Shown piece by piece: positions 8,523-42,686 of a stretch of DNA of 64,000 nucleotides (within the stretch, counting starts at the first letter, position 1; every line of letters begins with the position of its first letter). A program made the translations under genes and the position numbers. Under the pieces are notes generated by a model, which was not told the DNA's origin, ran no database searches, and saw only the letters and a list, made by a program, of their open reading frames with translations. Location: contig JAPYXD010000169.1 in assembly GCA_030998225.1 (NCBI GenBank), forward strand, positions 496,001 to 560,000, in the 5' to 3' direction. The DNA comes from Diplolepis rosae. Its lineage: Eukaryota; Arthropoda; Insecta; Hymenoptera; Diplolepididae.

Positions 8523-10408
8523 ATGTCAAATTCAAATACCCCTGTAGAATCCGCCCAAAAGGTTATTACGCGTATTAATTCCAAACAAGACAATCAACTC
8601 GCAAAAATTGTGGATCAGAATCAAATAGATTCCTTGAAACTAAAAAGATGAGGTAAAATCAAAGAAGATTTAGTCGATTATAAATAGAAGGATATTTCAA
8701 ACACTTTTTCTGCTGAACAAGAACTGGATAACACTCTTCAGCTAGACGATTCACTTTTCGACAAGACTAATTAATGATCGAAGCATATCAAGTGAAAATT
8801 GTAGTAAAACTAGCGGATTTCATTCAAGTTTCTGCCCAGATTTAAGCATTGTGACAGGATCTAGTAATCAAGATCAAACTTTAACGAACGAATTATCTTA
8901 TTTTGACTGATCTAATTTGCTAAGCTCAGCAGTAATAACAATAGAAAATAGAACTTTGAAAGAAAAATTGAAAACCTCATTGGCACGCGACTCTCTAATA
9001 AGTAACAACGATAGCGACGACGACAAAAGCGATACAGAAGTCATAAATCAGGATAATCCCGTAATAGTAAACAACGAAGAGATGCCCGTAGTCATACCTA
9101 ACAGCCATCAGGTATCCTTACGCGACACGCTAGAGGTGGTCCCTTTGTGCGACGGAAGTAACCTCCCATTGTCACATTTTATTGAGGGTTGCATGGAAGC
9201 AAAGGCAATGCTGCCGACATCTGCTGCCCAAGAAAATCTTGCACGTCTATTGAGAGGTAAATTGTCTGGTGAGTCACGAAAATGTATTTTTGGGTCAACG
9301 TATGCAACAATAGAGGAATTAATAGAAAAATTGAAAAAAGTATATGCCCCTGCGAAAAGCGTATATCAGTTGCAGGGAGAATTAGGTAATACATTTATGT
9401 GGGAAAGAGAAAATGTCCTTTCCTATGTTGCTAGAATTAAAGAAATTGCTGATAGAAGATGCTCACAGACTTAATAATGGCGGTCAGGTAGATAATGCTT
9501 TTAAACAAAATTTAGAAAGAGATGTAATTCAATGTTTCATACGCGGTTTGCGTCCTGAGTTAGAAATTCGTGTAGAAGAAAAGGACACATTTAAGGAAGT
9601 AATTAATGATACAATAGACATAGAACGAAGATTGGCTGCAAGTTCTGCACTGCGAAGAAATAAAAATACTGATTATTTAAAAACCAAAGTATCAACTAAT
9701 AATAATAATAATCATAAAACCATCCGATTCAACGTAGCACTTCAAAATAAAACTATTTGTTTAATTTGTAAAAAACCAGGTCACACAACTGAAAAATGTT
9801 TTCATTTAAGTAAAGCTCAAGATGCAGTTCTTAATAATAAACAAAAAAAATTTTTGCATCCTAACCAACAAGGATATAGTAATTTCAATGGTCAAAGAAG
9901 TAATAATAATAATAATTTTGCAAAAAACAATTACAATAATTTTCCAAATAACAATTACAATAATTTTCCAAATAACAATTTTTTAAGAAATAAAAATTAT
10001 AATTTTAATAATAACAACAATCATTTTTTACAAAATAGAAATAACAATTATAGAAACAATAATAATAATTTTTTACAACAAAGATACAACAATAATAATA
10101 ATTTTCCTAGAAATTTTTACAATAATAACAATAATGTGAATAATAATAATAGATAATTGAATCCAGGACGGTATAGAAACTTTAACTCAGGACAGTTTCA
10201 AAATCGAAATAAACCATATGAAAATAGATTTTTACAAAATAATAACACTCAACAAAATTTAAATTATACTGAAATAATTTGCAATTACTGTAAAAAACCC
10301 GGTCATTTAGTACGAGACTGCAAGATACGAACGAATAACCAATCACAAACAGCTCATCAGGAAAACTCCAAAGCTCTCCCCAGCACGGGTGCACTGAGGA
10401 AAGCATAA
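8523..10408 (+). pseudogene. gag: Gag of the large retroelement, broken
   Basis: The likely start is the ATG at 8523 (MSNSNTPVESAQKV). In-frame stops follow within 200 bases and again near 8772. The long central frame opens about 8911 and holds a Gypsy-type capsid region; one frameshift near 9450 moves it to the frame ending at 10156, where an in-frame TAA interrupts a very asparagine-rich linker that then continues to 10408. Two CCHC zinc knuckles are clear: CLICKKPGHTTEKC (9758-9799) and CNYCKKPGHLVRDC (10280-10321). Gag binds and packages the genomic RNA. It lies directly upstream of pol in another frame. Confidence 0.85.
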
Positions 10409-10836
10409 ATCGAGAACCACTGGCATCCACTTCTAACGATCATACAACAACAACAATAAATATTTCAAAGTCCACTTCAATTCCATCAATTATAATATCA
10501 ACGGAAGGTTTAAAAAATCCAACACACATGATGATTGATACTGGTGCTGCTCGAAATTTAATTAAACAAAAGGTTCTCAACCCTGAAGTACCAATAAATA
10601 GCCAATATGTATTCAAACTTACAGGAATTAATGATTTACCACTTTACACATTAGGACCGGTAAAAATAAACATTTTTGGTTATCCAACGATATTTAACAT
10701 TTAATGAAGTCCCAGTAGAAGAAGATGGAGTATTAGGATCAGAATTTTTTCAAGATAATAGTGTAAATTTAAATTATACTTCAAAATGCTTAGAAATTGA
10801 GAACCACTGTTACCCTTTTAAATCTACCAATACATT
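10404..10836 (+). pseudogene. pol: Pol: retropepsin-like protease, broken
   Basis: In the frame following gag the translation reaches MMIDTGAARNLI, an aspartic protease active site (DTGA at 10537-10548). A frameshift occurs near 10680, after which the ORF at 10676-10882 carries GVLGSEFF, the ILG-type C-terminal motif of Gypsy proteases. The frame then runs into an inserted solo LTR at 10837. It would cleave the Gag-Pol polyprotein. It is in a different frame from the end of gag, consistent with programmed frameshifting or with decay. Confidence 0.8.
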
Positions 10837-12082
10837 TGTTACGAGCGTATCAAGGTGGCGGAATTTTTCCAAAAATTGGTAATAATAATTCAATTATTAG
10901 ATTTCTATGCCACTTGAAGCGCCCGTAACCCGAGCACCTTGACAAGACCGCTGATGCAGCTCATCATTGCTCGGGTCGAAGACTTTAAAAAATGGTTGGT
11001 TCAGGAAGGAAATTCCCAATCTTGCTACTTTAAGCCAAATAGTTATTAGCTTAAAATTATTATTATATAACTTCGTCGTTAAGATGCTATTGATTTAGAT
11101 GTACTTAAACATACAAACGGTAGATCAAAGTCAATACAATTGTATGTCATGAAAAATTGGTATACATTCATATTAAATTAAATAACTTTCCAATCAAAAT
11201 ATATCAAATTCAATGTTAGCATTATTAAAATATATATATTTTCATTCATACTGTTTCTAAATAAATGTAAACTGTAGGAAAATATTATAAATTGGCACAG
11301 GATTCAGATGACTGGAAAGTAAAAGCAAGAAGGAGTTATTTCCTTATAACCAGAAACAGGTTTATTGTGAGACAGGAGTGGCGAAGGACAGGCAATTTAA
11401 AAGTACTGCCTCCCTTCTAGTTCAAAGCTATCCATTTCTTCCTCACCTTAAAACTATAAGGTCCAAGTAAAGAAAAAGGGTGTGTGCGCGAGTGAGTCGC
11501 GTAAGGACAAGGGTGGTTCCTTTTTGGAACCACGACAATCTCAAATCGAATTTGGCCCGGATCTCTAGGACTTCAGCAGCAAGAACGTATTCTCCATTAT
11601 TGCTTTTGCTCCCAGGACATCCGGTAGGATTAAGGAACTAGAATAAACAAAAGGATGCGGTAATGTACAAAATCCAAACATTGTATCGTTCTCATTGATA
11701 TTTATTCCGTATTTCTAAAACTCTACTAGAAAAGTGTTCACATAGGTCTGTTATTTTGCTTTTCTTAAGAATAAATTGTCTTTTGTATTTATGTGAATTT
11801 TAGCCACTTGATTCGAAATTATTTGAAGCACCTTTTCCCATTTTCTTTCTTTCAAAATTAAAAGTGATAAGCGTAGGCGTGTAGAATACACTCTCAGTCC
11901 GAGAGTAGAAGACCAACGACCCCACATAATAATAAAAGAATTTAGCTAATATTTATATTAACTAAATTCGACAGTTTGGACGACCTCCGCGTACCCATTT
12001 TATTAATAAATAAAGTATATTGAGAGTAATTGTTTTTACTTTTTATGAATTTCATTTAAATTAATAATACCCGTACGTAACA
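10837..12082. mobile_element. Solo LTR, BEL/Pao-like, 1246 bp, inside pol
   Basis: Starts TGTTACGAGCG and ends CGTACGTAACA, giving TG...CA with a short inverted tip TGTTACG/CGTAACA. Flanking ACATT at 10832-10836 and 12083-12087 is a 5-bp target duplication. Removing the insert plus one ACATT leaves the pol frame continuous from protease into the linker before RT. No gag, pol or second LTR lies within, so it is a solo LTR left by recombination. BEL/Pao assignment rests on the 5-bp duplication and end sequence only. Confidence 0.8.
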
Positions 12083-14112
12083 ACATTTACTATTCCAGCT
12101 CGAACAGTTACAACATTTTATATTGATATAAAAAATACAGAAAAGAGTGAAGGGTATGTACCTCGATTACATATCTAAAATGGCGTTTACTTAGGAGACG
12201 CAGTTGTAAAAAATCACAAAGGAAAAGCTTATTTAAAATTTGCAAGCACAAATGAAATACCAATAACATTATCAGTCCCAATAGTTAATTTAGAAGATTT
12301 TGAAGAACAAGAATGTTATAAACAAATTGAAAATTTACATAATTTTAAACAAACAAATAACGAAGATTTATCAAATAAAATATTAAATAACTTTTCAAGA
12401 ACTGACATTACTCTGATTAAATCGTGCAAAATTTATAATGTAACAGACGAAGACAGAGTAGAATGTATTAAAAAACTTCTTCGATTAGACCATTTAAATC
12501 AAGATGAATATGAACATGTAGAAAAATTAATTAAATATAATGCAGACAGATTTCAAATCCCAGGAGAACCACTTGAAGCAACTAATGTACTACAACATTC
12601 AATTCCTACTGTAGATGAGGCTCCAATTTTTTCAAGACAATATAGATTTCCCCCAGTTCACAAGGAAGAAATTACAAGACAAGTCGATGAATTATTAAAA
12701 AATAAAATAATTAAGCCCTCGCAGTCACCATATAACACTCCAATGTGGATAGTTCCTAAAAAACCTGATTCTCAAGGAAAAATAAAATGGAGAATGGTTC
12801 TTGATTTTCGTAAATTAAATGAAAAAACAATTGGCGATTCGTATCCTCTACCTACCATAATATAAACGATATACTTGATTCTCTAGGATCAGCAAAGTAT
12901 TTTTCAGTATTTGATTTAGCCACTGGTTTTCACCATATAAAAATGAACCCAAAAGACTCACATAAAACCGCATTTTCAACACCTCACGGTCATTACAAAT
13001 TCGATAGAATGCCTTTCGGTTTGAAAACAGCACCCGCCACATTTCAAAGATTAATGGATTTAACATTACCTGGATTAATCGGAACGGAACTTTTTGTAAA
13101 TCTTGATGACATAGTTATATATGCAAATACTCTAGAAGAGCACGAAATTAAATTTAACAATTTAGCAGAAAGACTTAGAAAAGCAAATATTCACTTGCAA
13201 CCAGACAAATGCGAATTTTTACGACCCGAACTAGGATATTTAGGTCATATAATTGATAAAAATGGACTACGTCCAGATCCAAAAAATATAATAGCTGTAA
13301 AAAACTTTCCAGTCCCAAAAACACAGAAAAATGTTAAACAATTTTTAGGCTTAGCAGGATATTATAGACGATTTATTGATGGATTTTCAAAAATTTCAAG
13401 TCCTTTAAATCAACTTCTGAAAAAAGATATACCTTTTAATTGGACCGAAAAACAACAAGCAGCTTTCGATATTTTAAAAGCAAAATTATGTGAAGAACCA
13501 CTTTTACAACGACCTGATTTTTCTCAACCTTCTATACTCACAACAGATGCCTCAGGATTTGCAATAGGAGGTATTTTATCACAAGGTAAAATAGGTAAAG
13601 ATAAGCCAATAGCATATGCTTCACGTAGTCTAAGTGATACTCAGAAAAAATATGATACATATGAAAAAGAAGCTCTTGCTATAATATTTTGTGTAACTCA
13701 TTTTCGTCCTTATTTGTGTGGAAGAAAATTCACTTTGGTAACTGATCACAAACCTCTAGTTTGGTTCCAAAATTCTAAAGACCCTTGTTCACGAGTTTCA
13801 CGTTGGAGAATGAAACTCGCAGAATATGATTTTGATGTAATTTACAAAGCAGGAAAAATGAATGTAAATGCAGACGCTCCCTCAAGAAACCCTATTGATG
13901 ATAACAAAAAGAAATCAAAATATTTACAAGCTGATGACAAAGATACTTTAATGACTTCTCAAGAGAAAATGTTTTCCAAGAAAATTTTTACAAGGAATAA
14001 ACAAGAAAACTCTGAAAACGAGGTTAAACCTTCAAAACGAAGAAACTTGAATTCAGGATTCGTACCAGATGACGTAGTCATTTTGGCAAAATCTCAGATG
14101 CCCAAATATTAA
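12083..14112 (+). pseudogene. pol: Pol: reverse transcriptase and RNase H, broken
   Basis: Plus-strand frames give the RT fingers (SPYNTPMWIVPKK, about 12725), a VLDFRKLN motif (about 12799), DLATGFHHI (about 12914), MPFGLKTAPATFQ (about 13009) and the catalytic box NLDDIVIY (about 13100; Leu-Asp-Asp form). RNase H follows with TTDASGFAIGG (about 13540), YEKEALAI and TDHKPLVWF, ending near NADAPSRNP (about 13870). Interruptions: an in-frame stop near 12176, a frameshift near 12860 just before INDILDSLG, and a frameshift near 14095. RT motifs are otherwise close to Gypsy consensus. Confidence 0.88.
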
Positions 14113-15270: not shown

Positions 15271-16491
15271 TCATTACATGAATTATCTCAAAGATTTAAA
15301 TTACGATCTATTAGTATATCAAAAACTTCCAGAATTAATCATATACCTTGGGAAGAAGTGAAATCAATTTTCGACTCAATTTTTTCAAATTCAACTACAA
15401 AAATTATAGTTTTTAATGGAATAACGCCATATCCAACAAAAGAACAACGAACTCATTTAATTGAAGAAGCTCATTCTTCAGCATTAGGAGGCCATAAAGT
15501 CGTCACAAAAACTTATAGTCGAAATCGCCAAAAATTTTTTTGGGAAAATATGAAAGTAGACATTCAAAAATATATTCAAGGCTGTTTACAATGTCAACTG
15601 AAAAAATTAATCAGAGTCAAAACAAAAAATCCTATGGTAATCACAGACACACCCACTACTGCTTTTAAAAAAATATCAATGGACATTGTTGGTCCACTAC
15701 CTGAAACAAAATCTGGTAACTTATATATTCTAACGATACAAGACAACTTTACCAAATATTCTTTATCAATACCTCTTCCCAATCACCAAGCTAGTACAAT
15801 AGCAGATGCTTTTGTGAAAAAATTTATTTGCATATTTGGATCACCAATAGGAGTACTTACTGACCAAGGCAGAGATTTTTTAAGTAATTCATTAACAAGA
15901 TTGGCAAAACGTTTTAGAATTGAACAATTTCGTACAACAGCTTTTCATCCTCAATCAAACGGGTCATTAGAACGTTCATATCATGTTTTGGGAGAATATC
16001 TCAAACAATTTGTTGTAAAAAATTCAGAATGGGATGATTGGCTTGAACTAGCAATGTTCTCGTATAATACTAGTGTACATGAAGGCACAAAATGCACACC
16101 CTATGAATTGGTTTTTGGTAAATTAGCTCGTGAACCTTCCAGCGAACCTTTATCACAACAAGAAAAATTACAAACGTATGATGATTATTTAATTAATTTC
16201 GTAACACAACTACACGAAATGCGAACACAAGCAAGAGAGAATCTTATTTCAACAAAAGAAAAATCGAAATTATATTATGATAAAAAAATAAATCCTTTAG
16301 AAGTAAAAATTGGATACAACATATTTTTATTAAAAGGAGGTAAAATAAAAAAACTAGAGAGCCATTATACAGGGCCTTATGAAATATTGAAAGTGTTAGG
16401 AAAAGGGAACGTCAAAATAAACTATAAAGGCAAACCTACTGTAGTTCACATTAATAGACTAAAACGCTTACACGTACAAGTACAAAAGTAG
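15271..16491 (+). pseudogene. pol: Pol: integrase
   Basis: The frame opens after the TAA at 15270. An HHCC zinc domain is visible (HLIEEAHSSALGGH to CLQC, about 15454-15597). The DDE core has MDIVGPLP (about 15679), LTDQGRDFL (about 15856) and SNGSLERSY (about 15955). The C-terminal domain ends at VHINRLKRL before the stop at 16491. No GPY/F-type chromodomain beyond a YTGPYEILK motif (about 16366). Apart from the upstream stop this is one of the best preserved parts of the element. It would insert the cDNA into host DNA. Confidence 0.9.
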
Positions 16492-16729
16492 ACGAATAAA
16501 AAAAAAATATGATAAAAAACAAAATATCTTTACTTTAATTATAAAAAATATGTATACATATACAATTTGAACAAAATATAGAAATTTTATTTTGTCGATA
16601 AATGGTAAAAATAAAAATAAATAACATATATAAATTTATATAAAAATATATATTTTATATAAAAAATATATACAACAAACAAACAAAAAAAATCATGAAA
16701 TTTAGACATAACACATTATTCCAGATATA
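16492..16729 (+). promoter_or_regulatory. AT-rich spacer ending in a 3' splice acceptor
   Basis: About 240 bases of A/T-rich, TA-repeat DNA after the integrase stop. It ends with ACACATTATTCCAG (AG at 16723-16724), six bases before the ATG of the CARD ORF. The position after pol and before a separate ORF is where spliced subgenomic messages of env-bearing elements join. Function is inferred. Confidence 0.45.
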
Positions 16730-17011
16730 ATGGATTAAATCCATCGCAAACGCATAGATGATCTCATTGAAATAGTTCCCTGTTTTATCGACATGGTAGC
16801 TCTCTGGCCATACTTAATTCAAACTGGAATTTTTAACCAAGACGACTGTAATATTCCCACATGGAGCAGAAACCTAAACAATCCAGATACAATAAAAGAC
16901 ATTTTTTCAACAATCAAAACAAGAGGACCGGACGCATACAAAAACTTGATTCTTAGTTTACGCCTATTAGATCATATTGTCATAGCTGACATGTTGGATA
17001 TTATAGACTAG
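16730..17011 (+). pseudogene. CARD-domain protein (Dronc-like) carried by the retroelement
   Basis: A one-domain ORF of about 90 residues. The frame reads Met-Asp, an in-frame TAA (16736-16738), then IHRKRIDDLIE and an uninterrupted frame to 17011. Features match caspase-recruitment domains of insect initiator caspases: HR at the start of helix 1, LIQTGIF after helix 2, and KTRGPDAYKNLILSLR (about 16914-16964) with the RGP-aromatic turn and the Leu-Arg helix, then ADMLDII. CARDs bind CARDs, as Dronc binds the Dark apoptosome. There is no caspase domain and no room for one, so a decoy or dominant-negative role is suggested. It lies between integrase and the glycoprotein, behind a splice acceptor. 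The TAA at codon 3 means this copy is dead or uses a later start (ATG 16793), which would lose helix 1. Confidence 0.75.
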
Positions 17012-17162: not shown

Positions 17163-18870
17163 ATGGGATTACGAGGCTTCCTTTTGGCACTGCTCACTTG
17201 CAACTTCAACTATATAACAACAGTCTACGCCATAATAGGATTCGATTGCGGATCAAATCAATCAAATATCACGGCATTATCTTTACTAGAGGTAGGAGAA
17301 TGTGATCTACCTCGATCACAAGTACATGTTGAAAGAACTTATATACAGCTTTTACAATTAACTGGATTTTCAAATTCAAAAGTAATACAATGCAAAATAG
17401 AAATTCGACGCGCCATCTCTCATTGTGGAATGCATTCTCACAGTTCCATAGTTGCAAGTGGCCACAATGAATATATACATGATGTTACACGAGATCAATG
17501 TAATCAAATGCACACAATAGGAACATATTTAGTAACCCCTTCTCTTCAGATATCAAAGTTAAAAGTAAATGATACTTCAACAACAGACAATTCTGAAACC
17601 TTTTATTCCTTAACGACTGAAGACAACTTTCGTACTGGCTGAAAAAACAAGAAAGCCAGTTTGCAGTTACGTTTTAATACAAACAGAACATCCAAAATTA
17701 TTAATTTTTGAAACCAGACCTGGAAATTCATTTTTAGAAAATAAACGTTTGGAAGTTCAAAATATGGACATTTTTACATACGTTAAATCTAAATTCATGT
17801 ATGTGGAAAGACACATACGCACTGTAATAAATAGACTTTATCACGACGTTCTTACTCAACGATGTATACTTGGACAGCAAGTTTTTAGAAATACATTAAC
17901 CTTAGCAACCCAATCACCAGACGAATTTGCATATCATTTAATGAAAAGCCCAGGATATATGTCAGTAATTGCAGGAGAAGTAGTACATATCGTAAAATGT
18001 ATACCAGTTGAAGTAAAATGTCGCAAAACTGAAGAATGTTATCTACAACTACCAGTATTCAGAGGAAATCAATCCTTTTTTCTTTCTCCACGAACTCATA
18101 TATTAACAAAATCTGGTATCCAGACTAATTGTAATTCTTTCCTTCCACCAATGTACCTTTTTGGTGAAACCTGGTACAAATTACTTCCAAATCCTGTTGA
18201 ATCCATAGCACCAACTACAATCAAACCTCTAACAAAAGCAACCTGGAAATATACAAATCCTTCATCCTTAGCAACAAGTGGCATTTATTCTCCATCTGAC
18301 CTTGATAAGCTACAAGATCATATAATGTTTCCAGCAGAAAAACCAATGATTTTAAATTCTTTAGCTAGAGAAATAACAGGACATCCGACTATTAATCAAG
18401 GAATATGATTGACAAATTTAATTAACCAAGAAGTAATTGATAAAATTGCTGAATCAGCTTGGGGTAGATTTTGGACAGTTTTTACAAATTTCGGAACTAC
18501 TAGTGCAGGTCTAATTGGATTAATTATGATAATTAGAAGTATCAAATTAATAGCAGATACCATTATTCATGGTTATGCATTACATAGATTATTTGTATGG
18601 TCTCTCCATTTACTAGGCGCCTTCTGGGATTCGGTCACTAACCTTTTGTTACACTTAGGTACCAACCGACCTGCTGGACCTCCCGCTGAGAGCCATCAAC
18701 CACTGCTTACAGCTTCAGCACCACAAAACTCTATAGAGGAAACTAAAAGTTCATCTCATAACGAAAATACCAATTCAGGTAAAGATGATAATAGTACGAA
18801 AACTACTCTTTATCCTTACTCTGAAATAAAAGAAGAACTTAGTAGATCACATTATTCAATTCAAATCTAA
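17163..18870 (+). pseudogene. env: Jingchuvirales-like glycoprotein (envelope) in the retroelement, broken
   Basis: The ATG at 17163 starts a hydrophobic signal-peptide-like stretch ending near VYA, followed by GFDCGSNQSN and HCGMHSHSSIV. The frame ends at 17642; a shifted frame resumes about 17655 and contains SPDEFAYHLMKSPGYMSV (about 17911), EVVHIVKCIPVEVK and LATSGIYSPSDL. An in-frame TGA (18406-18408) is followed by a hydrophobic segment (SAGLIGLIMIIRSIKLIA, about 18511) and a hydrophilic tail rich in Ser/Asn/Lys to 18870. This pattern is that of glycoproteins of chuvirus-type viruses that arthropod LTR elements, mostly BEL/Pao, are known to have captured; here it follows a Gypsy pol. 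The join near 17645 seems short, so a piece of the middle may be lost. At least two disabling lesions. Confidence 0.82.
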
Positions 18871-19195
18871 CATCTTAAGAATGTCGCATGTTCCTATTAC
18901 AATCTTACTAAACAAAATTATTCAACAAAGAGGAGATCCACCCCTCATTTATGACATACTCATTGAACAAACCAATAATAATGAATGTTTATTTCACGTT
19001 AATTTACAATATAAAAATTATATAACAATGAATAGTGGCAAAGATAAAGAAAATGTAAAGCAAAAGGTAGCACAAAATTTATATAATGCCTTGATTAATG
19101 AATCAAAGGAAACAAATCAAAACGTCCAACCAAATTCTATTAGTAAAAATTGCAAAAAATTAAACGAAATTTGCACTCAAAATAAATTTGAGTAT

Positions 19196-24401: not shown

Positions 24402-24877
24402 CCTAGGAAAAAAAAACCGATAGAACGCGCCTCTCTTTGAATTGTGTATCTGTCATTTGCATATTCAGGAAATAAAAATTCAATCGGATGGTGAAACTTG
24501 GAATCTGCCATTTGTGCGCAATGTTTTAAATCTGCCATTCGACATTGGTTAAATCGTTAAGCGAATAGGGTTGAATAAGACTGATTAACCTCAAATAATT
24601 TCTAATGGCAATGTACGATTCATTGATGTTCGCATGAATCGGTTGAAATTCCAAATGAAATAGAAGTCTTAAAAGGCCACTCTGAATAAGAGAAATACAA
24701 TAAAAACAGAATACGAATTGTATTGTAAACGATTGTTCATTTTAAATATATTATTTTCTATCGGAAATATTGGTTTTCAATCTGTTAATGCTGAAATTCC
24801 AGTGACAGATACGCAATTCAGAACACCTCAAAGCCTATTCAAATTTAACGCAAGTGAATGGTTTTTTGTTTCCTGGG
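24402..24877. mobile_element. 476-bp MITE, TA target duplication, Tc1/mariner-like
   Basis: Ends CCTAGGAAA...TTTCCTGGG with about 20-bp imperfect TIRs, flanked by TA at 24400-24401 and 24878-24879. The opposite arm of the host hAT-like element shows the unoccupied site. A plus-strand frame (24718-24921) starts with a signal-peptide-like sequence, but it lies inside this MITE and is not taken as a gene. Confidence 0.75.
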
Positions 24878-24937
24878 TAGTGGGGGCCGCCAGCTCCCAC
24901 GATCTGGGATCACTGACCTAAATCCAACCATATGTAA

Positions 24938-24979: not shown

Positions 24980-26500
24980 CCATTCACAATTTTATTTTAT
25001 GACTTATCTGGTATTTATTTTGAACCAATTTCAAAAATACGTCTATTTTCCGAAAATTATAATTTTATCTCTTATTTTGACATTTTGCAACCAAAAAAAT
25101 TTAAAATACAAAATAGTAGATATTTCTCACAAACTTTATGAACATTGTATACTTACAAATATTGCAAATAACTGTAATATATATAATCACCACACTCAGC
25201 TTAGATTTATGAAAAAACGTATAAATTATTTTCTGGGAGAAATTTAATTTATATCCAGACAAGCTCATAACATCACTAAAATTCCCAAAAATAGTGATCC
25301 ATTTTTACACCAAATTCAAAAAGTTCTTCTACAATCAAAAATAAGATAAAAAACTTCTCTTTATTGGCCTAAAGAAAATTTATTCCTACTTCCAAAACCA
25401 TTTTCTGAACAACTTGAAAATCTTTCATCCAATCTCAACAACGTTACGATGTACAAAGACTGGCATAAATCACAAATTTACCCAAATTTGCATATTTATA
25501 GAATTCTTGCAGCAAATTGGCTAATGGATTTGCATGAAATATCCCGATCCTTTCTATCACTCCTAACACAACTTACGGAAGCTATAACCCATGCCGCTAC
25601 AAATTTATGGCACCCCATGCTGCTTCCAGATACCTTCCTAGACTTCAAATCTAACAAAGAAGACCCTCACCTTCCAACGTCTCTTTTTTCTATGGTCATT
25701 CCATTTTCTAAAATAAGATACTTTACTTTCAAAAACTACTTAATTTTTACTATGACCATACCAGTTCCATCTTCTGACGAATTTCAAGTACAGTAAAACC
25801 TATCGTAGCCGACACATATGGGAGACAAGTTCGGCTACGATGGGTACCAATGACTTGTGATAATTGCTAGGGACTTATTACTAGCTTGGTTCAGTGCTGT
25901 GGCAACAGGTGCCCCTGTGTTTAGTAACACACATGTACCGGCTTGTACATATGTTTTGTGTTTACTTTTGTGCAAAAAGGTGTGTAAAAGTTAGTTTGAA
26001 AAATAAACAGTTATTTTTGTTGATAATTTTAAAATTTCATGGATAAATTCAGTCGATAAAAAACTATAAGGAATACTTAGTGCTTTTAGTGGAAAATGTA
26101 TAGATGACAGTTGAGGTTACGTTGCACGACTGTACATACATATTTAAGATCTTAATAAGTTGAAATATAATTGGTTATAATAATTCTCCAATTTTTCGAA
26201 GTTAAATTGTAATTAAAATATGAGGACCTCCAAAGACGGTGTTTAAGACGGCCCTGACCATGCACATTTCTCGACCAATAATGTGAAGCGTCAGAGTGGG
26301 ATGTTCGTTAGGAGAGTGTCGGCTACGATAGGTTTTACTGTACTTTTCTTATAATAATTATTCTATTAATAATACTAAATAAAATTCAAAAAATTAAAAA
26401 AAAAACTAATAAAAATATAAATAAAATTAAACTAGTTCAGAAAACTCCTCTTAGCCTATCAACAAAACCTCTTCTAAGTGACCTATCATTCAAATTTTAA
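24980..26500 (+). pseudogene. env: Baculovirus-F/errantivirus-like envelope remnant, broken
   Basis: One frame runs from the splice acceptor at 24979 to 25790 with in-frame TAA codons at about 25246 and 25348. Its last part has LLTQLTEAITHAATNLW, HPMLLPDTF, a KIRYFTFKNYLIFTMTIPV block and a DEF residue set, the arrangement seen near the heptad and LHP...IP regions of F-type envelopes. A pogo-like MITE interrupts at 25790. Beyond it a shifted frame encodes a hydrophobic segment FLIIIILLIILNKI (26345-26386) and a Lys-rich tail to TAA 26498-26500. The ectodomain between these parts is much shorter than in complete F proteins, so sequence has been lost. It would be a second envelope in the element beside the glycoprotein at 17163, or belong to an older neighbour. 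Confidence 0.55.
25791..26340. mobile_element. pogo/Tigger-like MITE, 550 bp, TA target duplication
   Basis: Perfect inverted ends CAGTAAAACCTATCGTAGCC with at least 25 paired bases, flanked by TA at 25789-25790 and 26341-26342. No ORF inside. The CAGT tip plus TA duplication is typical of the pogo/Tigger branch. Confidence 0.9.
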
Positions 26501-26823: not shown

Positions 26824-26824
26824 A

Positions 26825-27232
26825 ATGATTCCGACTGCGGCAGAACCGATCGTGTTCCACTCAGGACCTGTGGACGGTGTATGTCCACAGGATTATCCAA
26901 TCACCTATGGACACTTAATAAATAGCTTTTGTTTCGACTTAGAAACGTCAACCTTATTCATTTATTAGACTCAGGAAACAACAAAGAAATTTTGCCAATT
27001 TTGTTTCGAAAAATTACCAATAACAGAACAAAATAAATACGAATTCTGTACCTCATGGCACTCAGTTTGTAAAATACAATGCGTTAATATGAATTGTAAC
27101 GGTTGTAGGGAAGCATTAATAACGCCACGCTGTAGGGTAATCGACTGTAAAGGTTGTACTGAGCAATTCTTAAAAAATAAAATGCAACTTCAATTAGGAA
27201 ACGAAGTTATAGTTGAAAATGTTTTTCCATAA
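26825..27232 (+). pseudogene. Cysteine-rich ORF 1, RING-like spacing, one in-frame stop
   Basis: ATG at 26825 directly follows a splice acceptor. The frame has 47 codons (MIPTAAEPIVFHSGPVDG at the start), an in-frame TAG at 26966-26968, and then continues to TAA at 27230-27232. The second part carries a dense zinc-binding pattern: CQFC, then C-x3-H-x2-C-x3-C-x4-C-x2-C and two more cysteine pairs. The order C..C/C.H..C/C..C resembles RING-like cross-braced fingers but the spacing is not exact. No family recognised. It belongs to the run of plus-strand accessory ORFs between the envelope remnant and the next dsRBD gene. Confidence 0.5.
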
Positions 27233-27309: not shown

Positions 27310-27720
27310 AATTTAATTAGTATTTTAAAGCTCAATAACGAATTTGTTCATAGAAAAATACTGCCGCAAGATTTCGAATCCATTCAAGCCGAAAATCCAG
27401 AAAACGGCGAACAGTACTGCCAACCGTATATCGATCAAATAATTATGAAACAATTTTGTTGTTACTCTCCAGAAAACGAAATATATCAGAATACTTTAGA
27501 TCAAAAATTCATATGTAAAGAATGTTACAGATTTAAAATTACCTTTTTTGAATCAGAAATATCTGTACCTTTCCTTAACCGCCATATTGTAACCACGGAT
27601 CTTAACGAATTAAAATGTTCTGTCTGCGAAGAGCAAATTTTTTTCATACGATTTAGAGCAGACCAATGTTTTCTTTGCACTGAATATCTCTTTGAGTTAG
27701 CAAACGCGGAAAACGAATAA
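27310..27720 (+). CDS. Cysteine-rich ORF 2
   Basis: The frame is open from 27310, behind an acceptor-like TTTAATTAG (27312-27320); the first ATG is at 27445, giving 91 residues, but the upstream part (PQDFESIQAENPENGEQYC) looks coding. CxxC pairs occur as CKEC, CSVC and CFLC, suggesting zinc ribbons. No domain recognised. It may be a diverged duplicate or second exon of the previous ORF. Stop at 27718-27720. Confidence 0.5.
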   Translation, partial: NLISILKLNNEFVHRKILPQDFESIQAENPENGEQYCQPYIDQIIMKQFCCYSPENEIYQNTLDQKFICKECYRFKITFFESEISVPFLNRHIVTTDLNELKCSVCEEQIFFIRFRADQCFLCTEYLFELANAENE

Positions 27721-27832
27721 TTTATAATCCATATAAAGAATTATTAATGATAATAATAACTAATTCCCATTTATATCAATTAAATCACAAACAACTCAAA
27801 TAGATAATTATTTTGCAGATAAGGACAAGGCA

Positions 27833-28309
27833 ATGCAACAAAGAGATTTGACAAAGGGTAACGCAGTACAAATACTTAATGAAATAAGTATTGAATACAA
27901 TTTTTCAATACCGAATTACACAGTAAAATCGCTTGGAATACATCAGGAACTGCCGCCATTCGGGGCGACTTGCGAAATTTTAAAAGATAACTTAACCTAT
28001 GCTTGTGTTGGGGAACCTGCATCCCAAAAGAAAGTAGCAAAACAAAACGCAGCAGCTAAAGTCTTGGAAACACTTTCCACGAAATATATATTTTTAGAAG
28101 AGAAATTAGAAAAATGCTTAATAACGGAATCTAAATTTTATAATATAAGTGATAAAAACAATAAAAAAGCTTTACAAAAATGGACTAATTCATGTGAAAG
28201 GTGTTTTCAAAGAGGACATTTAGCTCATAACTGCCGCAACCCTTTACGTAATAAAAAATATAAAAATAACCCTGTTATAGTGAAAACTAAACTTTCTATT
28301 TTTGGATAG
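27833..28309 (+). CDS. dsRBD plus CCHC zinc-knuckle protein; stop codon displaced by a Gypsy insertion
   Basis: Preceded by ATTATTTTGCAG (AG at 27817-27818). Residues 10-82 form a clear dsRBD: GNAVQILNEI, IPNYTVKSLG, PPFGATCEI and the helix KKVAKQNAAAKVLETL. Residues about 123-136 are a CCHC knuckle, CERCFQRGHLAHNC. 158 codons with no lesion. The final 11 residues come from the LTR of the Gypsy that inserted at 28273. Across that insertion the pre-insertion frame would have stopped at TAA 35308-35310, right after the duplicated ACCC, so the native protein ended in the KYKNNP segment. Likely an RNA-binding accessory protein of the retroelement; a paralogue is at 58566. Best preserved member in the window. 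Confidence 0.82.
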   Translation: MQQRDLTKGNAVQILNEISIEYNFSIPNYTVKSLGIHQELPPFGATCEILKDNLTYACVGEPASQKKVAKQNAAAKVLETLSTKYIFLEEKLEKCLITESKFYNISDKNNKKALQKWTNSCERCFQRGHLAHNCRNPLRNKKYKNNPVIVKTKLSIFG

Positions 28310-28494
28310 TAGTGACATCAAACTGATGTCACTTTGTATGCTTTATTCGTGAGAGATTTTAGAGAAGAACTGACGAGGCCTGCCTGAACCTCTACATATA
28401 TAGACAGCTAAACCTAGGAGGGGGAGGTCATCAACCTCTACATATATGGGTAACTAAACCTGGGGGAAGGAGGTCATCATCTGGCCTGGTAACA
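28273..28494 (-). repeat. 3' LTR of the minus-strand Gypsy
   Basis: TGTTATAGTG...CTGGTAACA, 222 bp, TG...CA ends. One base differs from the 5' LTR (A against G in the CATCARCCTC motif). It supplies the last codons and stop of the upstream dsRBD ORF. Confidence 0.95.
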
Positions 28495-28508
28495 CCCCCC
28501 TTTTTAGA
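28495..28508 (-). other. Polypurine tract
   Basis: On the minus strand CTAAAAAGGGGGG abuts the 3' LTR, the expected site of plus-strand DNA priming. Confidence 0.85.
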
Positions 28509-28576
28509 CATAAATTAACCCTTTAATTTCTAGATTTTAACCGTCTGTTTTAGACATGAATTAGTCTCTCAATTTA

Positions 28577-29558
28577 CTAAATTCTTACCCTCCTTTCTTT
28601 TGGTATTTCGATGGTTACCAAGGGTTGCAAGCTAGAATTGTACGTGACAACGTTCGTCGGCGTTGTTACCTTTGTTTTTACACAGAATATACAGAGTTTT
28701 TTGGGCATACACTTTTGTATGAATTCGAGTATTCCTAATCTGTACAGAACATAGGCTGATCCTAATCCTAACGCTGTGTAACCTAAATAGCTTAACCAAT
28801 CTATAGTTGTTTCTCTCCATGTTCTTAGTCTTCTGTTAGTGGCTATTGATTTTAACATATTTTCTGCATCGTCGAGGCTTAATTTGGCTTGTCGTAATTC
28901 ATTGTTATCTATAATTTTAGGAGACGTATTAATTTACTTTCTAAGGTTTTTAGATCGTCGTTAGAGTAACTAATGTTGTAGGTCACATTGAATTCGTTGT
29001 AAAATTGTCCCTTTAGATTTTTGCTAAGGTACAGTGCGTCCATTCCATTATAGATTTTACAATTTGAGCCCGTCAGTAGTGAGAATTGTTTAATCTTTAG
29101 GTGTTCTATTCCTGTTTCGCAGCTAATATCTAAATCTACCTCGTTCATTAGTACTATTATGTATCCGTTTAGTACGGGTATGAAGGTTTCTTTGTGTAAA
29201 GCAAAAGGTGAAGTTTTACATTTGTTCTCTGAATATCGCTTGAATATCGTAGCTTCGCATGTTTCACTGTCAGTCAACCTAAGGTTTGGTTGGTTTCTTT
29301 CGCAAATTTTATATTCGCTTATCGTTGTACATTTATTTATTGTTTCCTAGTCAGTAATTACATATGAGTCTCTAAATTTGATTAAATAGTCATGGTCGGG
29401 AATTACTGCGAAATATAGGTTTTGGATAGGATAAGGGATAGGTATAATATGTTTGATGGTACCCTCTTCCTGTACTATAATGGGAATTTTGACGGTTGTA
29501 AGGTGTAGTTGGCTTTACAGTTGGCCATTGCCGCTATTAGAAGTACTAGGGTCCTCAT
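28577..29558 (-). pseudogene. env: Errantivirus-type Env, broken
   Basis: The minus-strand ATG at 29556-29558 overlaps the pol stop and starts a signal-peptide-like MRTLVLLIAAMANC. A frameshift follows within 25 codons, an in-frame TAG is near 29350, the frame 29277-28909 carries several cysteines (CEATIFKRYSENKC), and another frameshift leads to the frame 28858-28577 with the membrane segment WLSYLGYTALGLGSAYVLY and a short cytoplasmic tail. Layout, size and position after integrase fit insect errantivirus envelopes. At least three lesions make it non-functional. Confidence 0.8.
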
Positions 29559-32500
29559 CTAAAAATTAAGATTTTAACTAGGTTCCCTGGCTTGTATAAA
29601 GGATGCGTTCTTGTTATTCCTTCATCCAATCTTTTCTTAGTTTTTTCTAATTCCACTTGGATTCTTTCTTTAGCTTTTCTGATGTTTTCCTCGTGTTTTT
29701 GCCTCCATTTTCTAATCAGATCTTGATGGGTTAAATTGGGTGAGTTTTCAATTTGAGATGGTATATTTGGTAATCTTCCAAACGTGAGTTCAAAGGGTGT
29801 GAATCCCGTGGTTTGATTTACTGTTGAATTTATTGCGAATGTTACATATTTTAGATTTTCGTCCCAGTTATTCTGATTTTCTGCCATGCTAGTTTTGATC
29901 AGATTATTCAGGGTTGAGTGCATTCTTTCAATGTTTCCGTTGGATTGTGGATGGAATGCTGTAGTTTTAATATGTTTGATTTTCAAAGCTTTCTCAAATT
30001 GTTCCATTAACTCAGATAGAAAGTTAGACCCTTGATCAGTGAGAATAATTTTAGGAGATCCATAAATGTAAATATATTGTTCTATCAGAGCTTCTACTAT
30101 TGCTGTTGAGGTTTCACTTTCTAACGGTATTAAAGTGGTGTATCTGGTCAATCTATCCTGAATACTAAGTATGTATTTGTTACCTCTAGGTGTAGTGGGT
30201 AACGGTCCAAAAATATCCAGTGCTATTTTATCATTTGGATTGAGTGGTATGTCGGGTATTATACTTTCTGATTGATTCTTAATTCGCGTGGTCTTTTGTA
30301 GTTGGCATATAGGGCATTTTTTGAGTTAGTCCTTGATGTCTTGGTCCATGTTGGTCCAAATTCCGATTCTCTTGGCTTTTTCGATAGTATTTTGTTCTCC
30401 AGTGTGATCCCTATGAGCTTCTTCAATAATTTGTTTTCGTTCTTCCTTAGTTAATTCTCGGGTTGTAGAGAAACAAATGTGGAAATTCTTATCTCGATAA
30501 TAGTTTGATAGGAATTCCATTATTTCTTGAATTACTTCTCGCTCCAGAAATGTAAATAGAGGATCTCCAAAGGATAATCTAACAATTGAGAGTTTTCTAT
30601 TAACGAATTCTTCGATAAACCAACTTAATTTATACAGCCAACCTTCTTCGTTGTACATAGGCATTTCATCCTTAGTTACTTCTTTCCAAAGTTTGCCGAT
30701 AGCGTTAGGCTTTGTTTTAATTTTGCCTTTGACTGGTTGTAGTTTCCAATTTATAAAATCCGTATATAAATTAGTATTGTCTCCTGGTGTTTCCGTGATT
30801 TCTTCTTCCGTTTCTGTGGTTTCATCTTCTGATGGTTCTCTCATTCGCCTCGCGGTTAATTTGATTTTTTCTTTTAAAATTTCGTCTTTTGTTATTCGCG
30901 GCGTGTCGAATGTTTCTATTTCCGGTGACTGGTCTTCCAAGCTTGGTTCTTCTTCTTCAGTACTAATTCCGGTTTTTTCCATTGCTTCTTGTAATGTGTC
31001 CTTAGTGATGGGAAAAAGTCTGGATAGACAATCCGCTACTATATTTTCTTTTCCTTTTACATATTCTATTTCGTATTCGTATTCTTCCATACGAAGTCTC
31101 CATCGTAAAAGTCTTAAGCTAGGGTCTTTCACATTGTGTAGCCAAACTAAAGCACGGTGGTCTGTTTGAATTTTGAATTTCTTTCCGAGAAGATATTGTC
31201 TGAGGGGTTTCATAGCCCATACAATTGCTAAAAGTTCTTTTTCAGAGGTGGTGTATTTTTCTTCGGCTTTGTTCAATGTTCTTGATATAAAAAGACAAGG
31301 GTGCCCGTCTTGGCTCAATACTGCTCCTAATCCACAGTTGGATGCGTCCGTAGTCAGTATAAATTGTTTGGAAAAATCAGGGAATTTTAAAACTGGTGCG
31401 ATTACCAATGCGTTCTTCAAATCGTAAAATGCTTTTTCGCAGTCTGGGGTCCAATCGAATATTGTCTCTTTCTGAGTTAGCTTTGTTAAGGGTCTCGCTA
31501 TAGTAGAGAAATTCTTGATGAATTTCCTATAGTAACCTGCAAGTCCTAAAAATGATTGCACATCTTTTAAAGTTTTCACTGGTCTGAATTCTTTTATGCA
31601 GTTTATTTTTTCAGGGTTGGGTTTGACTCCTTCTTTGGTTATTATGTGTCCAAGGTATTCTAGTTCTGGTTTAAGGTATTCACATTTTTTCGGTTCTAAT
31701 CTTAGTCCTAACTGGTAGATTCATTCCATGACTGCTACCAAGTTCTCATTATGTTCCTGAATTGAGCTTCCGAATATCACAATGTCATCTATGTACGCAA
31801 AGCATTTTGTTCCGATTAATCCTCTGAATGCATTATCCATCATTCTTTGGAAAGTGGCTGGTGCGTTCTTTAAACCGAAAGGCATGCGATTGTATTCGAA
31901 ATGTCCTTGGGTTGTAGAAAACGCAGTGTACTTTTTGTCTTCTTCCTTCATCGGGATTTGGTGGAATCCAGCTGAGAGGTCAAAGGCAGAAAAGAACTTA
32001 GCTTTTCCTAAGTGATCTAATATATCGTCGATCATTGGTAATGGGTAAACATCTTGATCCGTGTCTTCGTTGATCTTTCTGTAGTCAATTACCATTCTTA
32101 ATTTATTTCCTTTTTTCGGTACTATCCATAAAGGTGAGTTGTATGGTGATTGACTTTCACTTATAATTCCCTTTTTTAATAACCTTTCTGTTTCTTCTAG
32201 GGCAAACTGTCGGTGTTTTTCGGGTGATTTGTGGGATCTTAGATTAATTATTTTTCCATTTTTGAGTATTATTTGATGTTCAGTAAGGTTAGTACATGGA
32301 AGTGGGTCTGATTCCAATGTGAAAAATTCCGAGTATCTGGCTATTACTTTTTTAATGAATTCTCTCTGGTCTTTTTCCAAATGATCTAATCTTGAAGCTT
32401 TCAATAACTCATTCAGTCTAAAGGTTATTTGAGGTCCATTACTTTCATTTGTGATTATTTTTAATATAGGTTCGTAGCTAATCTGGAAATTTACTTCTTT

Positions 32501-33205
32501 AGGGTAATCCTCATTATTTTTCAATGGGATTTTTATTTGTCCGTTTCGTATAGTGTAGAGTCCGTCGGGGATTTCCTTATCATCTATAATGATAATATCT
32601 TGATCTTCTGCGTCAGTAGAAATGGTACATATCTTTTCGGATTTTCCTGGTATGAAATCATTGCTTAGGTGCAAAGGTAGCTTTACCTTATTTAGCACGA
32701 GGTGACTGTTCGTGATCGCGTATCTTGGATATTTTTCAAAGAATTTAATTCCAATTATACCTCCTTCTGGTAAGGGAAAATCGTTGGGTACTATGTAGAA
32801 AACGTGTTCTTGTCCAAAAAAGTTTAATTTTGTAGAATGTTTAGAGATATGGCGATCGTTACCCATTAGGAATGTTTTGTGGGTAGATTTCCTTTCGTCT
32901 TTATCATCCAATATTTTTTCTTTGATTATGTTTATAGCAGCTCCTGAGTCTACTAATAATCTGTATCTTCCAGTTTTTCTTCTGGCATCGATTGTTCGTA
33001 ATCTTCCGCATATGGAAGAAATTCGGCTGATTCCTCGAAGATCAGTTGCTCCGTTATTTCTTCCTCTGTCATGTTTTCCGCTTCTGTTTCTTCCTCTTGG
33101 ATTGCTCTTACCGGAGGTGGTCGCTTGAAACCATGGCCTGGGGGAAAACCCTGCTTCACTTGGCACTGTGAAGATATATGACCTATTTTGCCGCACTTGA
33201 AGCAA
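29555..33205 (-). pseudogene. pol: Gypsy Pol (protease, RT, RNase H, integrase), two in-frame stops
   Basis: One minus-strand frame from 33205 to 29555. Protease LLVDSGAAINII (about 32955), RT with DLSAGFHQIPM (about 31985), MPFGLKNAPATFQ and AYIDDIVIFG (about 31795), RNase H with TTDASNCGLGAVLSQ, TSEKELLAIVWA and TDHRALVWL, integrase with CPICQ, LDIFGPLP, LTDQGSNFLS (about 30035) and HPQSNGNIERM. In-frame TGA at about 31718-31720 lies between RT palm and thumb, and TAA near 30323-30325 inside the integrase zinc finger. Overlaps gag by about 250 bases in another frame, as expected for frameshift expression. Confidence 0.92.
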
Positions 33206-34239
33206 TTCATTTTAAATCTGTCACTCAGTGGTATGGTACTATTCTGTGCTCTAGGTGTAGTATTTGCACTGAGTCGAGGTGGTCCGGGTGATTTGGCCCA
33301 TATTTTTACTGGTGGTTTGATAATTTGTCTGGCAGGCTGGCTGTCTTTTAACCATGTTTCAGTTTCGATGGCTAATGCTTGAGCCTCGTTTACTGTGTTC
33401 GGTTTTAACAGACGTACCGGCATTCCAATTTCTCTTTTTAAATTTAATAAGTAACGGTTAACGGCTTCTTCTTCTTCCAATTCTATTTTAAGTCTTCGTT
33501 TAGTGGGCTTTACGTGCTGGGATTGGACTATGTAATTTATTTCATTTGTTATTTGTCGAAACCTTGTCGTGAAGTTCTGAACCGTTTCTGTTAAGCCTTG
33601 CTTGCAGCTTTCTAATTTAGATTTTAATGAAATTAATGAGCTGGTTTGTCTCAAATTTTGTCTGAGTGCCGCGTATAAATCTTCATAGGAGTTTATTTGC
33701 ATATACCTAATGGCTTTTTCTGCCGCGTGTGTAATTTTCTTTGCTAAAATTAAATCTAGAAGAATTTCTGGTTCTTCGCATCTTATTCTAGCTCTCTTTG
33801 CTGTTTTTATAAAATCTTCTACTCCCATGTCGTCCTGACCGTTAATTGGCTTTATCGTTTCAATTGCTAACTTGGCTCCCATTTTCCGTTCTTCGTGTGG
33901 TGCTGTTGAGACAGTTGTTGGGAAAAATTGTGATTGACCGTAAATATTTTCCTGCCTTGGTCTAAATGTTTCTTTTCTTTGGAATGTTTTTTCTTCGACC
34001 GAAGAATGGTCGTCTGTCGCTTCTGGTCGTTGCTGGAATTCACTATCTGTTTCTACTGTCCCTGCTCCTCCTAATTTCTTTGATAATCTTGAAATTTCAT
34101 CTATCCTATTTTCGTTTTCTTTTTTCAGGGCGTTGAATGAGATAGTAAGAGTTTCCATTTGGTTGAGAACCCTTACTAGTAATTCGTCAGTGGTGTAAGA
34201 GGGGGACTGGGCCCTGACGGGAGATTGTGCTCGAGACAT
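32953..34239 (-). CDS. gag: Gypsy Gag, intact
   Basis: 428 codons from the minus-strand ATG at 34237-34239 (MSRAQSPVRAQSPS). A coiled N-terminal region (LNQMETLTISFNALKKENE), the capsid-like middle, and one CCHC knuckle CFKCGKIGHISSQC near residue 345, then an acidic C terminus. No lesion. Forms the particle and packages RNA. It is the only intact gene of this element. Confidence 0.88.
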   Translation of the reverse strand: MSRAQSPVRAQSPSYTTDELLVRVLNQMETLTISFNALKKENENRIDEISRLSKKLGGAGTVETDSEFQQRPEATDDHSSVEEKTFQRKETFRPRQENIYGQSQFFPTTVSTAPHEERKMGAKLAIETIKPINGQDDMGVEDFIKTAKRARIRCEEPEILLDLILAKKITHAAEKAIRYMQINSYEDLYAALRQNLRQTSSLISLKSKLESCKQGLTETVQNFTTRFRQITNEINYIVQSQHVKPTKRRLKIELEEEEAVNRYLLNLKREIGMPVRLLKPNTVNEAQALAIETETWLKDSQPARQIIKPPVKIWAKSPGPPRLSANTTPRAQNSTIPLSDRFKMNCFKCGKIGHISSQCQVKQGFPPGHGFKRPPPVRAIQEEETEAENMTEEEITEQLIFEESAEFLPYAEDYEQSMPEEKLEDTDY

Positions 34240-35060
34240 GAGAGTGGTTGTGATTGGGAAATTTAAAGAGGATTAGTCCGTATCGTCGGATGAGTCGGTT
34301 TGATAGAGCGTGCTATCTCGGTGTTTATCAAACGCCAGTGTACCTACTTATCTATTGTTTGTGACTCGGGTGTAGAATGTCGCGATAAAATTTTAAATGT
34401 TTATTTTTTAATACAACAAAATGCAGTATAAGTTGCTACAAACTGCTACTGATTTTGAGGTAGTGATACTTAATTTGTTAAGGGTGGCCAGTGCTTGTGA
34501 ACACACAGAGTATAGCCAACCCGATCTTGCCTCAACTTTACCTCACCTGTACCGTAGTACAGTCGCCGTGCAACGTACGTAAAGAGGATTTATACTCTAA
34601 GGCCCAAGATCGATTGAGAAATGTTTACAATACTTTCACTTTCTAGAAGTAATGCTTACTGTGCTACTCGTGGCCTGATGTGGGATCCATAGACCGCCTG
34701 CCTTCCTTGACGTGTCGAAGAGATGAGTCAGCGTACTGTTGAGAACCGGTTGCCTGGCTGGGCGTTGGCTGCTTACTTACGCAGATGCGTCTTCCGCCTG
34801 ATTGCGGGCCTCGTTCAATTTTAATGGAATCTTTCACTGATAATTTACGTGGTATAGTGGCTACTAAATTCACCAACTAATTTTTATTATCAGCTACTTA
34901 TTCCTGTTTTCGGGCTTATCGTAGTGAAGTCCGGAGTTCTTCTTATTTTTAAAACTTCGTAAAGTTTCTTTAGCTTCTTGGGTCCGTGGATTCCAAGTTT
35001 CGCACAGGTCCGCGTTCTATGTGGATTTTCGTAGAAATTAAAAACCGAGAACTTAAGCGG
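34240..35060 (-). other. Gypsy 5' untranslated leader
   Basis: About 820 bases between primer site and gag on the minus strand. Contains a short frame (34664-34876) with no motif. No other feature recognised; packaging and splice-donor signals would be expected here. Confidence 0.6.
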
Positions 35061-35078
35061 ATCCTGGCAGGATCGCCA
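35061..35078 (-). other. Primer-binding site, tRNA-Arg type
   Basis: Minus-strand TGGCGATCCTGCCAGGAT starts three bases inside the 5' LTR. It is complementary to a tRNA 3' end of the form ...CCTGGCAGGATCGCCA, which I recall as insect tRNA-Arg(UCG); that identity should be checked. Confidence 0.75.
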
Positions 35079-35081
35079 AAA

Positions 35082-35303
35082 TGTTATAGTGAAAACTAAA
35101 CTTTCTATTTTTGGATAGTAGTGACATCAAACTGATGTCACTTTGTATGCTTTATTCGTGAGAGATTTTAGAGAAGAACTGACGAGGCCTGCCTGAACCT
35201 CTACATATATAGACAGCTAAACCTAGGAGGGGGAGGTCATCAGCCTCTACATATATGGGTAACTAAACCTGGGGGAAGGAGGTCATCATCTGGCCTGGTA
35301 ACA
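35082..35303 (-). repeat. 5' LTR of the minus-strand Gypsy
   Basis: Partner of 28273-28494; 222 bp, one observed difference. Confidence 0.95.
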
Positions 35304-35310
35304 ACCCTTA

Positions 35311-42670: not shown

Positions 42671-42686
42671 TTAATTCCTATTAAAG

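What the first reader, a model, noticed from the sequence alone, without database searches (positions are those of the whole stretch)
8523..35310. One large retroelement with an unusually large accessory gene set
From gag to the last dsRBD gene all recognisable genes that are not later insertions lie on the plus strand and in retroelement order: gag, pol, CARD, glycoprotein, tandem dsRBD, dsRBD-CCHC, F-like envelope, two Cys-rich ORFs, dsRBD-CCHC. Most start within a few bases of a 3' splice acceptor. Subtracting the later insertions leaves about 13-15 kb. I know of no insect LTR element described with both apoptosis-type and dsRNA-binding accessory genes. The observation of the domains and order is direct; that they belonged to one element is inference, because no LTR pair was found.
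Basis: partly seen in the sequence, partly recalled or inferred. Interest (0 to 1): 0.93.

Follow-up and report, generated by a model that had tools for sequence, protein, structure and literature searches.

The report
Large insect retroelement with accessory genes
This looks like a broken copy of a virus-like insect mobile element that, beside the usual genes, carries a cell-death-type gene, several RNA-binding genes and one or two surface-protein genes, a mixture that could let it block its host's defences.

Summary
On the plus strand, in order: gag/protease (weak profile support), RT-RNaseH, integrase (Ty3/gypsy type), a CARD-only protein, a chuvirus-type fusion glycoprotein, tandem dsRBDs, dsRBD-CCHC, a second envelope-like protein (recalled motif only), two Cys-rich proteins, dsRBD-CCHC. 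Five later insertions, each with a candidate flanking duplication, explain the gaps. Setting them aside leaves about 13.25 kb from gag start to the last gene. The stated end, 35310, is the edge of the last insertion; the element runs on to at least 35448.

The best new evidence is other copies: related proteins of CARD (57), dsRBD-CCHC (37) and Cys-2 (9). Junctions in them join integrase to CARD (2), CARD to glycoprotein (3), Cys-2 to dsRBD-CCHC (2) and dsRBD-CCHC to downstream DNA (1). So pol-CARD-glycoprotein is one repeated unit. That the middle belongs to it rests on this window alone. No LTR pair was found, and the own genome could not be searched. Likely function (inferred): CARD as apoptosome decoy, dsRBDs as RNAi blockers.

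The parts
8523..10704 (+). gag (capsid-like region, Asn-rich stretch, CCHC knuckles) and protease; several frames, broken
   Evidence: ORFs; gag-asp_proteas E 0.028, below cut-off; weak matches to gag and protease of other elements in the window; CCHC knuckles read by eye
10837..12082 (.). probable later insertion between protease and RT; ends TG...CA with 5-bp duplication ACATT, solo-LTR-like
   Evidence: 8 of 10 terminal matches; third of ten candidate boundary pairs listed there, chosen for its TG...CA ends
12179..14112 (+). reverse transcriptase and RNase H, Ty3/gypsy type
   Evidence: RVT_1 E 6.6e-27, RT_RNaseH E 7.7e-37
15271..16491 (+). integrase: H2C2 zinc finger, rve core, GPY/F-type C-terminus (motif read by eye)
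   Evidence: Integrase_H2C2 E 4.5e-18, rve E 7e-13
16730..17011 (+). CARD-only protein (93 aa in 26 of 57 relatives); this copy has an in-frame stop just after its start
17163..18870 (+). chuvirus-type fusion glycoprotein (PF24664), in three ORF pieces with part of the profile unmatched
   Evidence: E 7.1e-40, 2.6e-110, 1.6e-32
18881..21560 (+). tandem dsRBD protein, interrupted in the second dsRBD by the insert at 19196-21134
   Evidence: dsrm E 0.0026 and 0.00015, both below cut-off
19196..21134 (.). later insertion: DNA transposon with about 400-nt inverted repeats, candidate duplication TAT
   Evidence: other boundary candidates listed there
21580..22163 (+). third dsRBD with CCHC knuckle (frame broken)
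   Evidence: dsrm E 0.0023, below cut-off; knuckle read by eye
22168..24915 (.). later insertion: hAT-type element, ends CAGTGAT, 8-bp duplication ACCTAAAT, with a nested MITE at 24402-24877
24980..26500 (+). second envelope-like membrane protein (F-like by recalled motif), with a C-terminal hydrophobic segment; broken
   Evidence: ORFs; no relevant Pfam match in four pieces, no PDB match for one piece
25791..26340 (.). later insertion: MITE with matching inverted ends, TA duplication, inside the second envelope gene
26825..27232 (+). Cys-rich protein 1 (one in-frame stop)
   Evidence: ORFs; acceptor 1 nt before ATG
27358..27720 (+). Cys-rich protein 2 (120 aa in 4 of 9 relatives)
27833..28272 (+). 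dsRBD-CCHC protein (149 aa in 14 of 37 relatives), cut at its very end by the insert that follows
   Evidence: dsrm E 1.8e-7
28273..35303 (-). later insertion: separate minus-strand Ty3/gypsy element with its own LTR pair; duplication ACCC (second copy 35304-35307)
   Evidence: repeat pair of 226 nt, 99%, genes; LTR edges and ACCC read by eye; the automatic scan did not list them
35308..35533 (+). continuation of the element after its last recognised gene, with a further acceptor-ATG site (by eye)
   Evidence: P0035 matches 35305-35448 at 59%

Best explanation
This is a decayed copy of one large, multicopy Ty3/gypsy (Metaviridae-type) envelope-bearing endogenous retrovirus of an insect, probably a hymenopteran. 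Beside gag and pol it carries a CARD-only protein, a chuvirus-type fusion glycoprotein, three dsRBD proteins (two with a CCHC knuckle), a second envelope-like protein and two Cys-rich proteins. Shown: most domains, their order, multicopy status of three of the genes, and pol-CARD-glycoprotein and Cys-2/dsRBD-CCHC linkage in other copies. Inferred: one LTR-driven transcript is spliced to an acceptor before most genes; the CARD binds Dark/Apaf-1 or Dronc CARDs as a decoy and delays apoptosis; the dsRBD proteins coat dsRNA or Dicer partners and blunt RNAi; the glycoproteins carry particles between cells; the Cys-rich proteins are zinc-binding regulators (weakest guess).
For: Five proteins from other contigs cross integrase/CARD (P0092, P0098) or CARD/glycoprotein (P0071, P0096, P0099); two cross Cys-2/dsRBD-CCHC (P0019, P0027); P0035 continues into window 35305-35448. 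CARD has 57, dsRBD-CCHC 37 and Cys-2 9 related protein clusters. Each interruption has a candidate flanking duplication (ACCC by eye). Intergenic steps are small. All 14 rows of element parts measured are A-rich on the plus strand (AT skew +0.04 to +0.29), against -0.05, -0.03 and +0.01 in two inserts and the 5' flank. CARD fold. The Lys motif QKK..K/T is kept in 30 of 37 dsRBD-CCHC relatives and the CCHC pattern in 16 of 37, several being short pieces.
Against: No LTR pair. The own genome was never searched. The middle junctions are seen only here. A dsRBD/CCHC relic at 57975-58862 stands apart from any recognised part of the element. Selection evidence is modest: conservative replacements exceed the neutral 97.5% bound in 4 of 7 dsRBD-CCHC, 1 of 9 CARD and 0 of 3 Cys-2 comparisons, rows picked by me from 37, 57 and 9; database proteins are open frames by selection. 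The F-like label has no profile support. The A-rich skew is not specific: a 3' flank has +0.04, like the second envelope, and the minus-strand Ty3 element has +0.21 on its own strand.
Confidence: 0.72

Rival explanations
1. Two retroelements side by side or nested: gag-pol-CARD-glycoprotein-dsRBD is one, and second envelope-Cys-dsRBD-CCHC is the 3' part of another whose gag-pol is gone.
For: No other copy yet spans the middle. Two different fusion glycoproteins in one element would be unusual. Among the element parts measured, the second-envelope region has the weakest A-rich skew (+0.04) and the lowest G content.
Against: No LTR or element end was seen between the halves. The 8-bp duplication of the hAT insert shows that dsRBD-3 and the second-envelope acceptor were about 64 bases apart before it landed. 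Both halves carry a dsRBD-CCHC gene.
Confidence: 0.17
2. The accessory genes are remains of another endogenised virus (for example a DNA virus) or host genes, and a Ty3/gypsy element merely landed beside them.
For: CARD-only genes are known in DNA viruses (ranavirus, PMC4457926 abstract). A dsRBD/CCHC relic lies at 57975-58862 without a recognised part of the element beside it.
Against: Integrase-CARD and CARD-glycoprotein junctions occur in five proteins of other contigs. CARD has 57 related clusters, which fits a mobile unit better than a host gene.
Confidence: 0.06
3. One element, but the dsRBD-CCHC proteins serve RNA packaging or export of unspliced RNA and the CARD is a structural or signalling adaptor, not defence blockers. 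(This competes with the functional half of the best explanation only.)
For: dsRBD with a CCHC knuckle resembles nucleic-acid chaperones; a long multi-gene RNA needs export and packaging (established for complex retroviruses, recalled). Dicer-like, Staufen and TARBP2 dsRBDs all match, at E 0.0003 to 0.03, so the match does not point to one pathway.
Against: Gag has its own CCHC knuckles (read by eye). The viral CARD-only protein whose abstract I read inhibits apoptosis (PMC4457926).
Confidence: 0.3

Closest known systems
Errantiviruses and other envelope-bearing Ty3/gypsy elements of insects (Metaviridae)
   Same: Ty3/gypsy-type RT, RNase H and integrase, plus an envelope gene downstream; PMC13172572 (passages and Discussion read) mentions gypsy elements with type III fusion glycoproteins
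   Different: Adds CARD, several dsRBD, dsRBD-CCHC and Cys-rich genes, and apparently a second envelope; about 13.25 kb without LTRs
Anakin, BEL-Pao elements with a chuvirus glycoprotein (PMC7642597, passages read)
   Same: A retroelement that captured a chuvirus-type glycoprotein
   Different: Anakin is Pao-type; here pol is Ty3/gypsy-type. PMC10084718 (one part of five and passages read) reports no clear evidence of such capture by Gypsy elements, though Gypsy fragments often lie beside these glycoproteins in Hymenoptera
Ranavirus CARD-only protein (GIV-CARD, PMC4457926, abstract read)
   Same: About 91-93 aa, a lone CARD encoded by a viral or virus-like genome
   Different: GIV-CARD inhibits apoptosis in cells; here the function is untested, the carrier is a retroelement, and the nearest natural PDB sequence match is insect Dronc
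dsRBD-type suppressors of RNAi in insect viruses (recalled, for example Drosophila C virus 1A)
   Same: A dsRBD with the Lys motif on a small viral protein
   Different: Several copies in one element, two with CCHC knuckles; suppression not tested

Membership tests
Ty3/gypsy (Metaviridae) elements | pol order protease, RT, RNase H, integrase with a GPY/F-type C-terminus | tested here: met
   protease and Integrase_p58_C matches are below their cut-offs, and the GPY motif was read by eye
Ty3/gypsy (Metaviridae) elements | two long terminal repeats and target duplication | tested here: not met
   no upstream/downstream similarity above shuffles; one or both LTRs may be deleted in this copy, so this copy is filed as Ty3/gypsy-type by its pol only
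Errantivirus-like endogenous retrovirus | envelope gene downstream of pol, with a splice acceptor | tested here: met
   PF24664 glycoprotein with an acceptor-like site 2 nt before its ATG; splicing itself not shown
Errantivirus-like endogenous retrovirus | phylogenetic position of RT inside the errantivirus clade | not tested
   no reference RT set was held
Anakin (BEL-Pao with chuvirus glycoprotein) | Pao-type pol | tested here: not met
   Pfam matches of pol are RVT_1, RT_RNaseH, Integrase_H2C2 and rve; no Pao-type family is listed
CARD-only proteins | lone CARD fold, no other domain | tested here: met
   length 93 aa in 26 of 57 relatives
CARD-only proteins | blocks caspase recruitment | not testable with these tools
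   needs binding and cell assays
dsRBD-type RNAi suppressors | dsRBD with dsRNA-contacting Lys motif | tested here: met
   dsRBD-CCHC: dsrm E 1.8e-7, Lys motif in 30 of 37; that this motif contacts dsRNA is recalled
dsRBD-type RNAi suppressors | suppression of RNAi | not testable with these tools
   needs a reporter assay
F-type (baculovirus-like) envelope | profile match to known F proteins | tested here: inconclusive
   no relevant Pfam match in four pieces, no PDB match for one piece; the label rests on a recalled motif and a C-terminal hydrophobic stretch

The most novel reading that the evidence does not exclude
A 'complex' Ty3/gypsy retrovirus of Hymenoptera that evolved, independently of vertebrate complex retroviruses, a full set of accessory genes: an apoptosome decoy, several dsRNA-binding RNAi blockers, zinc-binding regulators and two unrelated fusion glycoproteins, all expressed from one spliced provirus and spread as a multicopy family.
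Probability: 0.5. Interest if true: 0.92.

Novelty: new variant of a known kind. Interest (0 to 1): 0.8.

Why it matters
Insect endogenous retroviruses are known with gag, pol and env. An element that also carries cell-death and dsRNA-binding genes would show that insect retroelements, like vertebrate retroviruses and large DNA viruses, can arm themselves against both apoptosis and RNAi. It makes testable whether retroelements, and not only RNA viruses, encode RNAi suppressors in insects. It also gives a Ty3/gypsy case of chuvirus-type glycoprotein capture, for which PMC10084718 found no clear evidence.

Full report
What was claimed.

What is in the sequence. Pfam finds RVT_1 (E 6.6e-27), RT_RNaseH (7.7e-37), Integrase_H2C2 (4.5e-18) and rve (7e-13) in ORFs between 12823 and 16491. 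A very strong PF24664 Monjiviricetes_fusion match falls in three ORF pieces between 17046 and 18870 (E 7.1e-40, 2.6e-110, 1.6e-32). The profile stretch 140-256 is not matched, so the glycoprotein of this copy is broken. Gag is recognised by no Pfam model and protease only weakly (E 0.028); both resemble frames of other Ty3 elements in the window (E 0.003 and 1e-4). dsRBDs score 18.7, 22.7, 18.9 and 32.1 bits against a cut-off of 23, so only the last passes alone. A CCHC knuckle follows the last one (24.5 against 27).

Insertions. The 22168-24915 element has hAT-type ends and an 8-bp duplication. A MITE at 25791-26340 has matching ends and TA. A transposon at 19196-21134 has TAT as the likeliest duplication. 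A TG...CA segment at 10837-12082 has ACATT, one of ten candidates listed for that gap, so its edges are the least certain. The minus-strand element 28273-35303 has its own LTR pair (226-nt repeats 99% alike) and its own gag, RT and integrase; its duplication ACCC was read by eye. It sits at the very end of the dsRBD-CCHC gene: 9 of the 17 relatives aligned end at that same point, the rest being short pieces except one that runs on. By arithmetic, without building any sequence, gag start to the end of that gene is 13,251 bases outside the inserts.

Other copies. The strongest test of 'one element' came from proteins of other contigs that happen to cross gene borders. P0092 and P0098 run from integrase into CARD. 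P0071, P0096 and P0099 run from CARD into glycoprotein sequence. P0019 and P0027 begin with the last residues of Cys-2 (E 1.7e-4 and 5.0e-7) and go on into dsRBD-CCHC. These eight of 103 proteins are the border crossings recognised; short junctions in others were not sought one by one. None crosses the middle: glycoprotein/tandem dsRBD, dsRBD-3/second envelope, or envelope/Cys-1. Whether those contigs are from the same species as the window is not known.

Within the window the middle is tight: coordinate steps of 11 from glycoprotein stop to dsRBD start, 20 to the dsRBD-3 frame, about 64 from the end I assign to dsRBD-3 to the envelope acceptor, and 325 from envelope to Cys-1. Gene starts are enriched for nearby acceptor-like sites: 4 of 6 against 27 of 322 ATGs. 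All 14 rows of element parts are A-rich on the plus strand, but one 3' flank equals the lowest of them. None of these alone proves one unit.

What speaks against. No LTRs. No answer from the genome search in ten tries. A separate dsRBD/CCHC relic at 57975-58862, 48% like dsRBD-3 over 44 residues and 31% like dsRBD-CCHC, lies beside what I take, by eye, to be a DNA transposon; it may be an older relative of the element or a free-standing gene. Neutral simulation gives modest signs of selection: 4 of 7, 1 of 9 and 0 of 3 chosen comparisons for dsRBD-CCHC, CARD and Cys-2 exceed the 97.5% bound. The second envelope is F-like only by a motif I recall.

How it likely works. Recalled for errantiviruses and retroviruses: one LTR-driven RNA, spliced for downstream genes. 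Inferred here: the acceptor-like sites before most genes serve that; a lone CARD related to Apaf-1/Dronc CARDs acts as a decoy in the apoptosome, as the ranavirus CARD-only protein inhibits apoptosis (PMC4457926, abstract); dsRBD proteins with an intact Lys motif (30 of 37) bind dsRNA and blunt RNAi; one or two glycoproteins carry particles between cells. RNA packaging or export is a fair rival for the dsRBD-CCHC proteins.

What is known. Chuvirus-type glycoproteins in BEL-Pao elements are known as Anakin (PMC7642597, passages). PMC10084718 (part 2 of 5 and passages) found Gypsy fragments beside these glycoproteins in Hymenoptera but no clear evidence of capture by Gypsy. PMC13172572 (passages and Discussion) mentions gypsy elements with type III fusion glycoproteins. 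So the pol-glycoprotein pair is a known kind or near it; the CARD, dsRBD and Cys genes are the new part. Ten paper searches listed no such element, in an open-licence library only.

Verdict. Real, multicopy, and probably one element: 0.72 for the whole, higher for pol-CARD-glycoprotein. Host: probably hymenopteran, from one named relative only.

Noticed in passing
57975-58862: Broken dsRBD/CCHC relic, 48% like dsRBD-3 over 44 residues and 31% like dsRBD-CCHC; other element genes give only chance-level matches near it.
   Followed up: partly
14112-15270: Long spacer between RNase H and integrase with an acidic 12-nt-repeat tract and two AT-hook-like motifs (motif recalled).
   Followed up: no
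42684-52453: 98% identical direct repeats of 766 nt about 9 kb apart flank minus-strand RT and integrase ORFs: probably another Ty3/gypsy element with its LTR pair.
   Followed up: no
35360-35480: Acceptor-ATG site and short frame after the last dsRBD-CCHC gene, with related residues in P0035; perhaps one more small gene, cut short by the inverted-repeat element at 35534-36513.
   Followed up: partly
2429-6213: Long inverted repeats (265 and 242 nt, 97-98%) of a foldback-type element upstream of gag.
   Followed up: no
7554-7757: Two tandem units of 109 nt upstream of gag, possibly leader or old LTR material; no primer-binding site recognised by eye.
   Followed up: no
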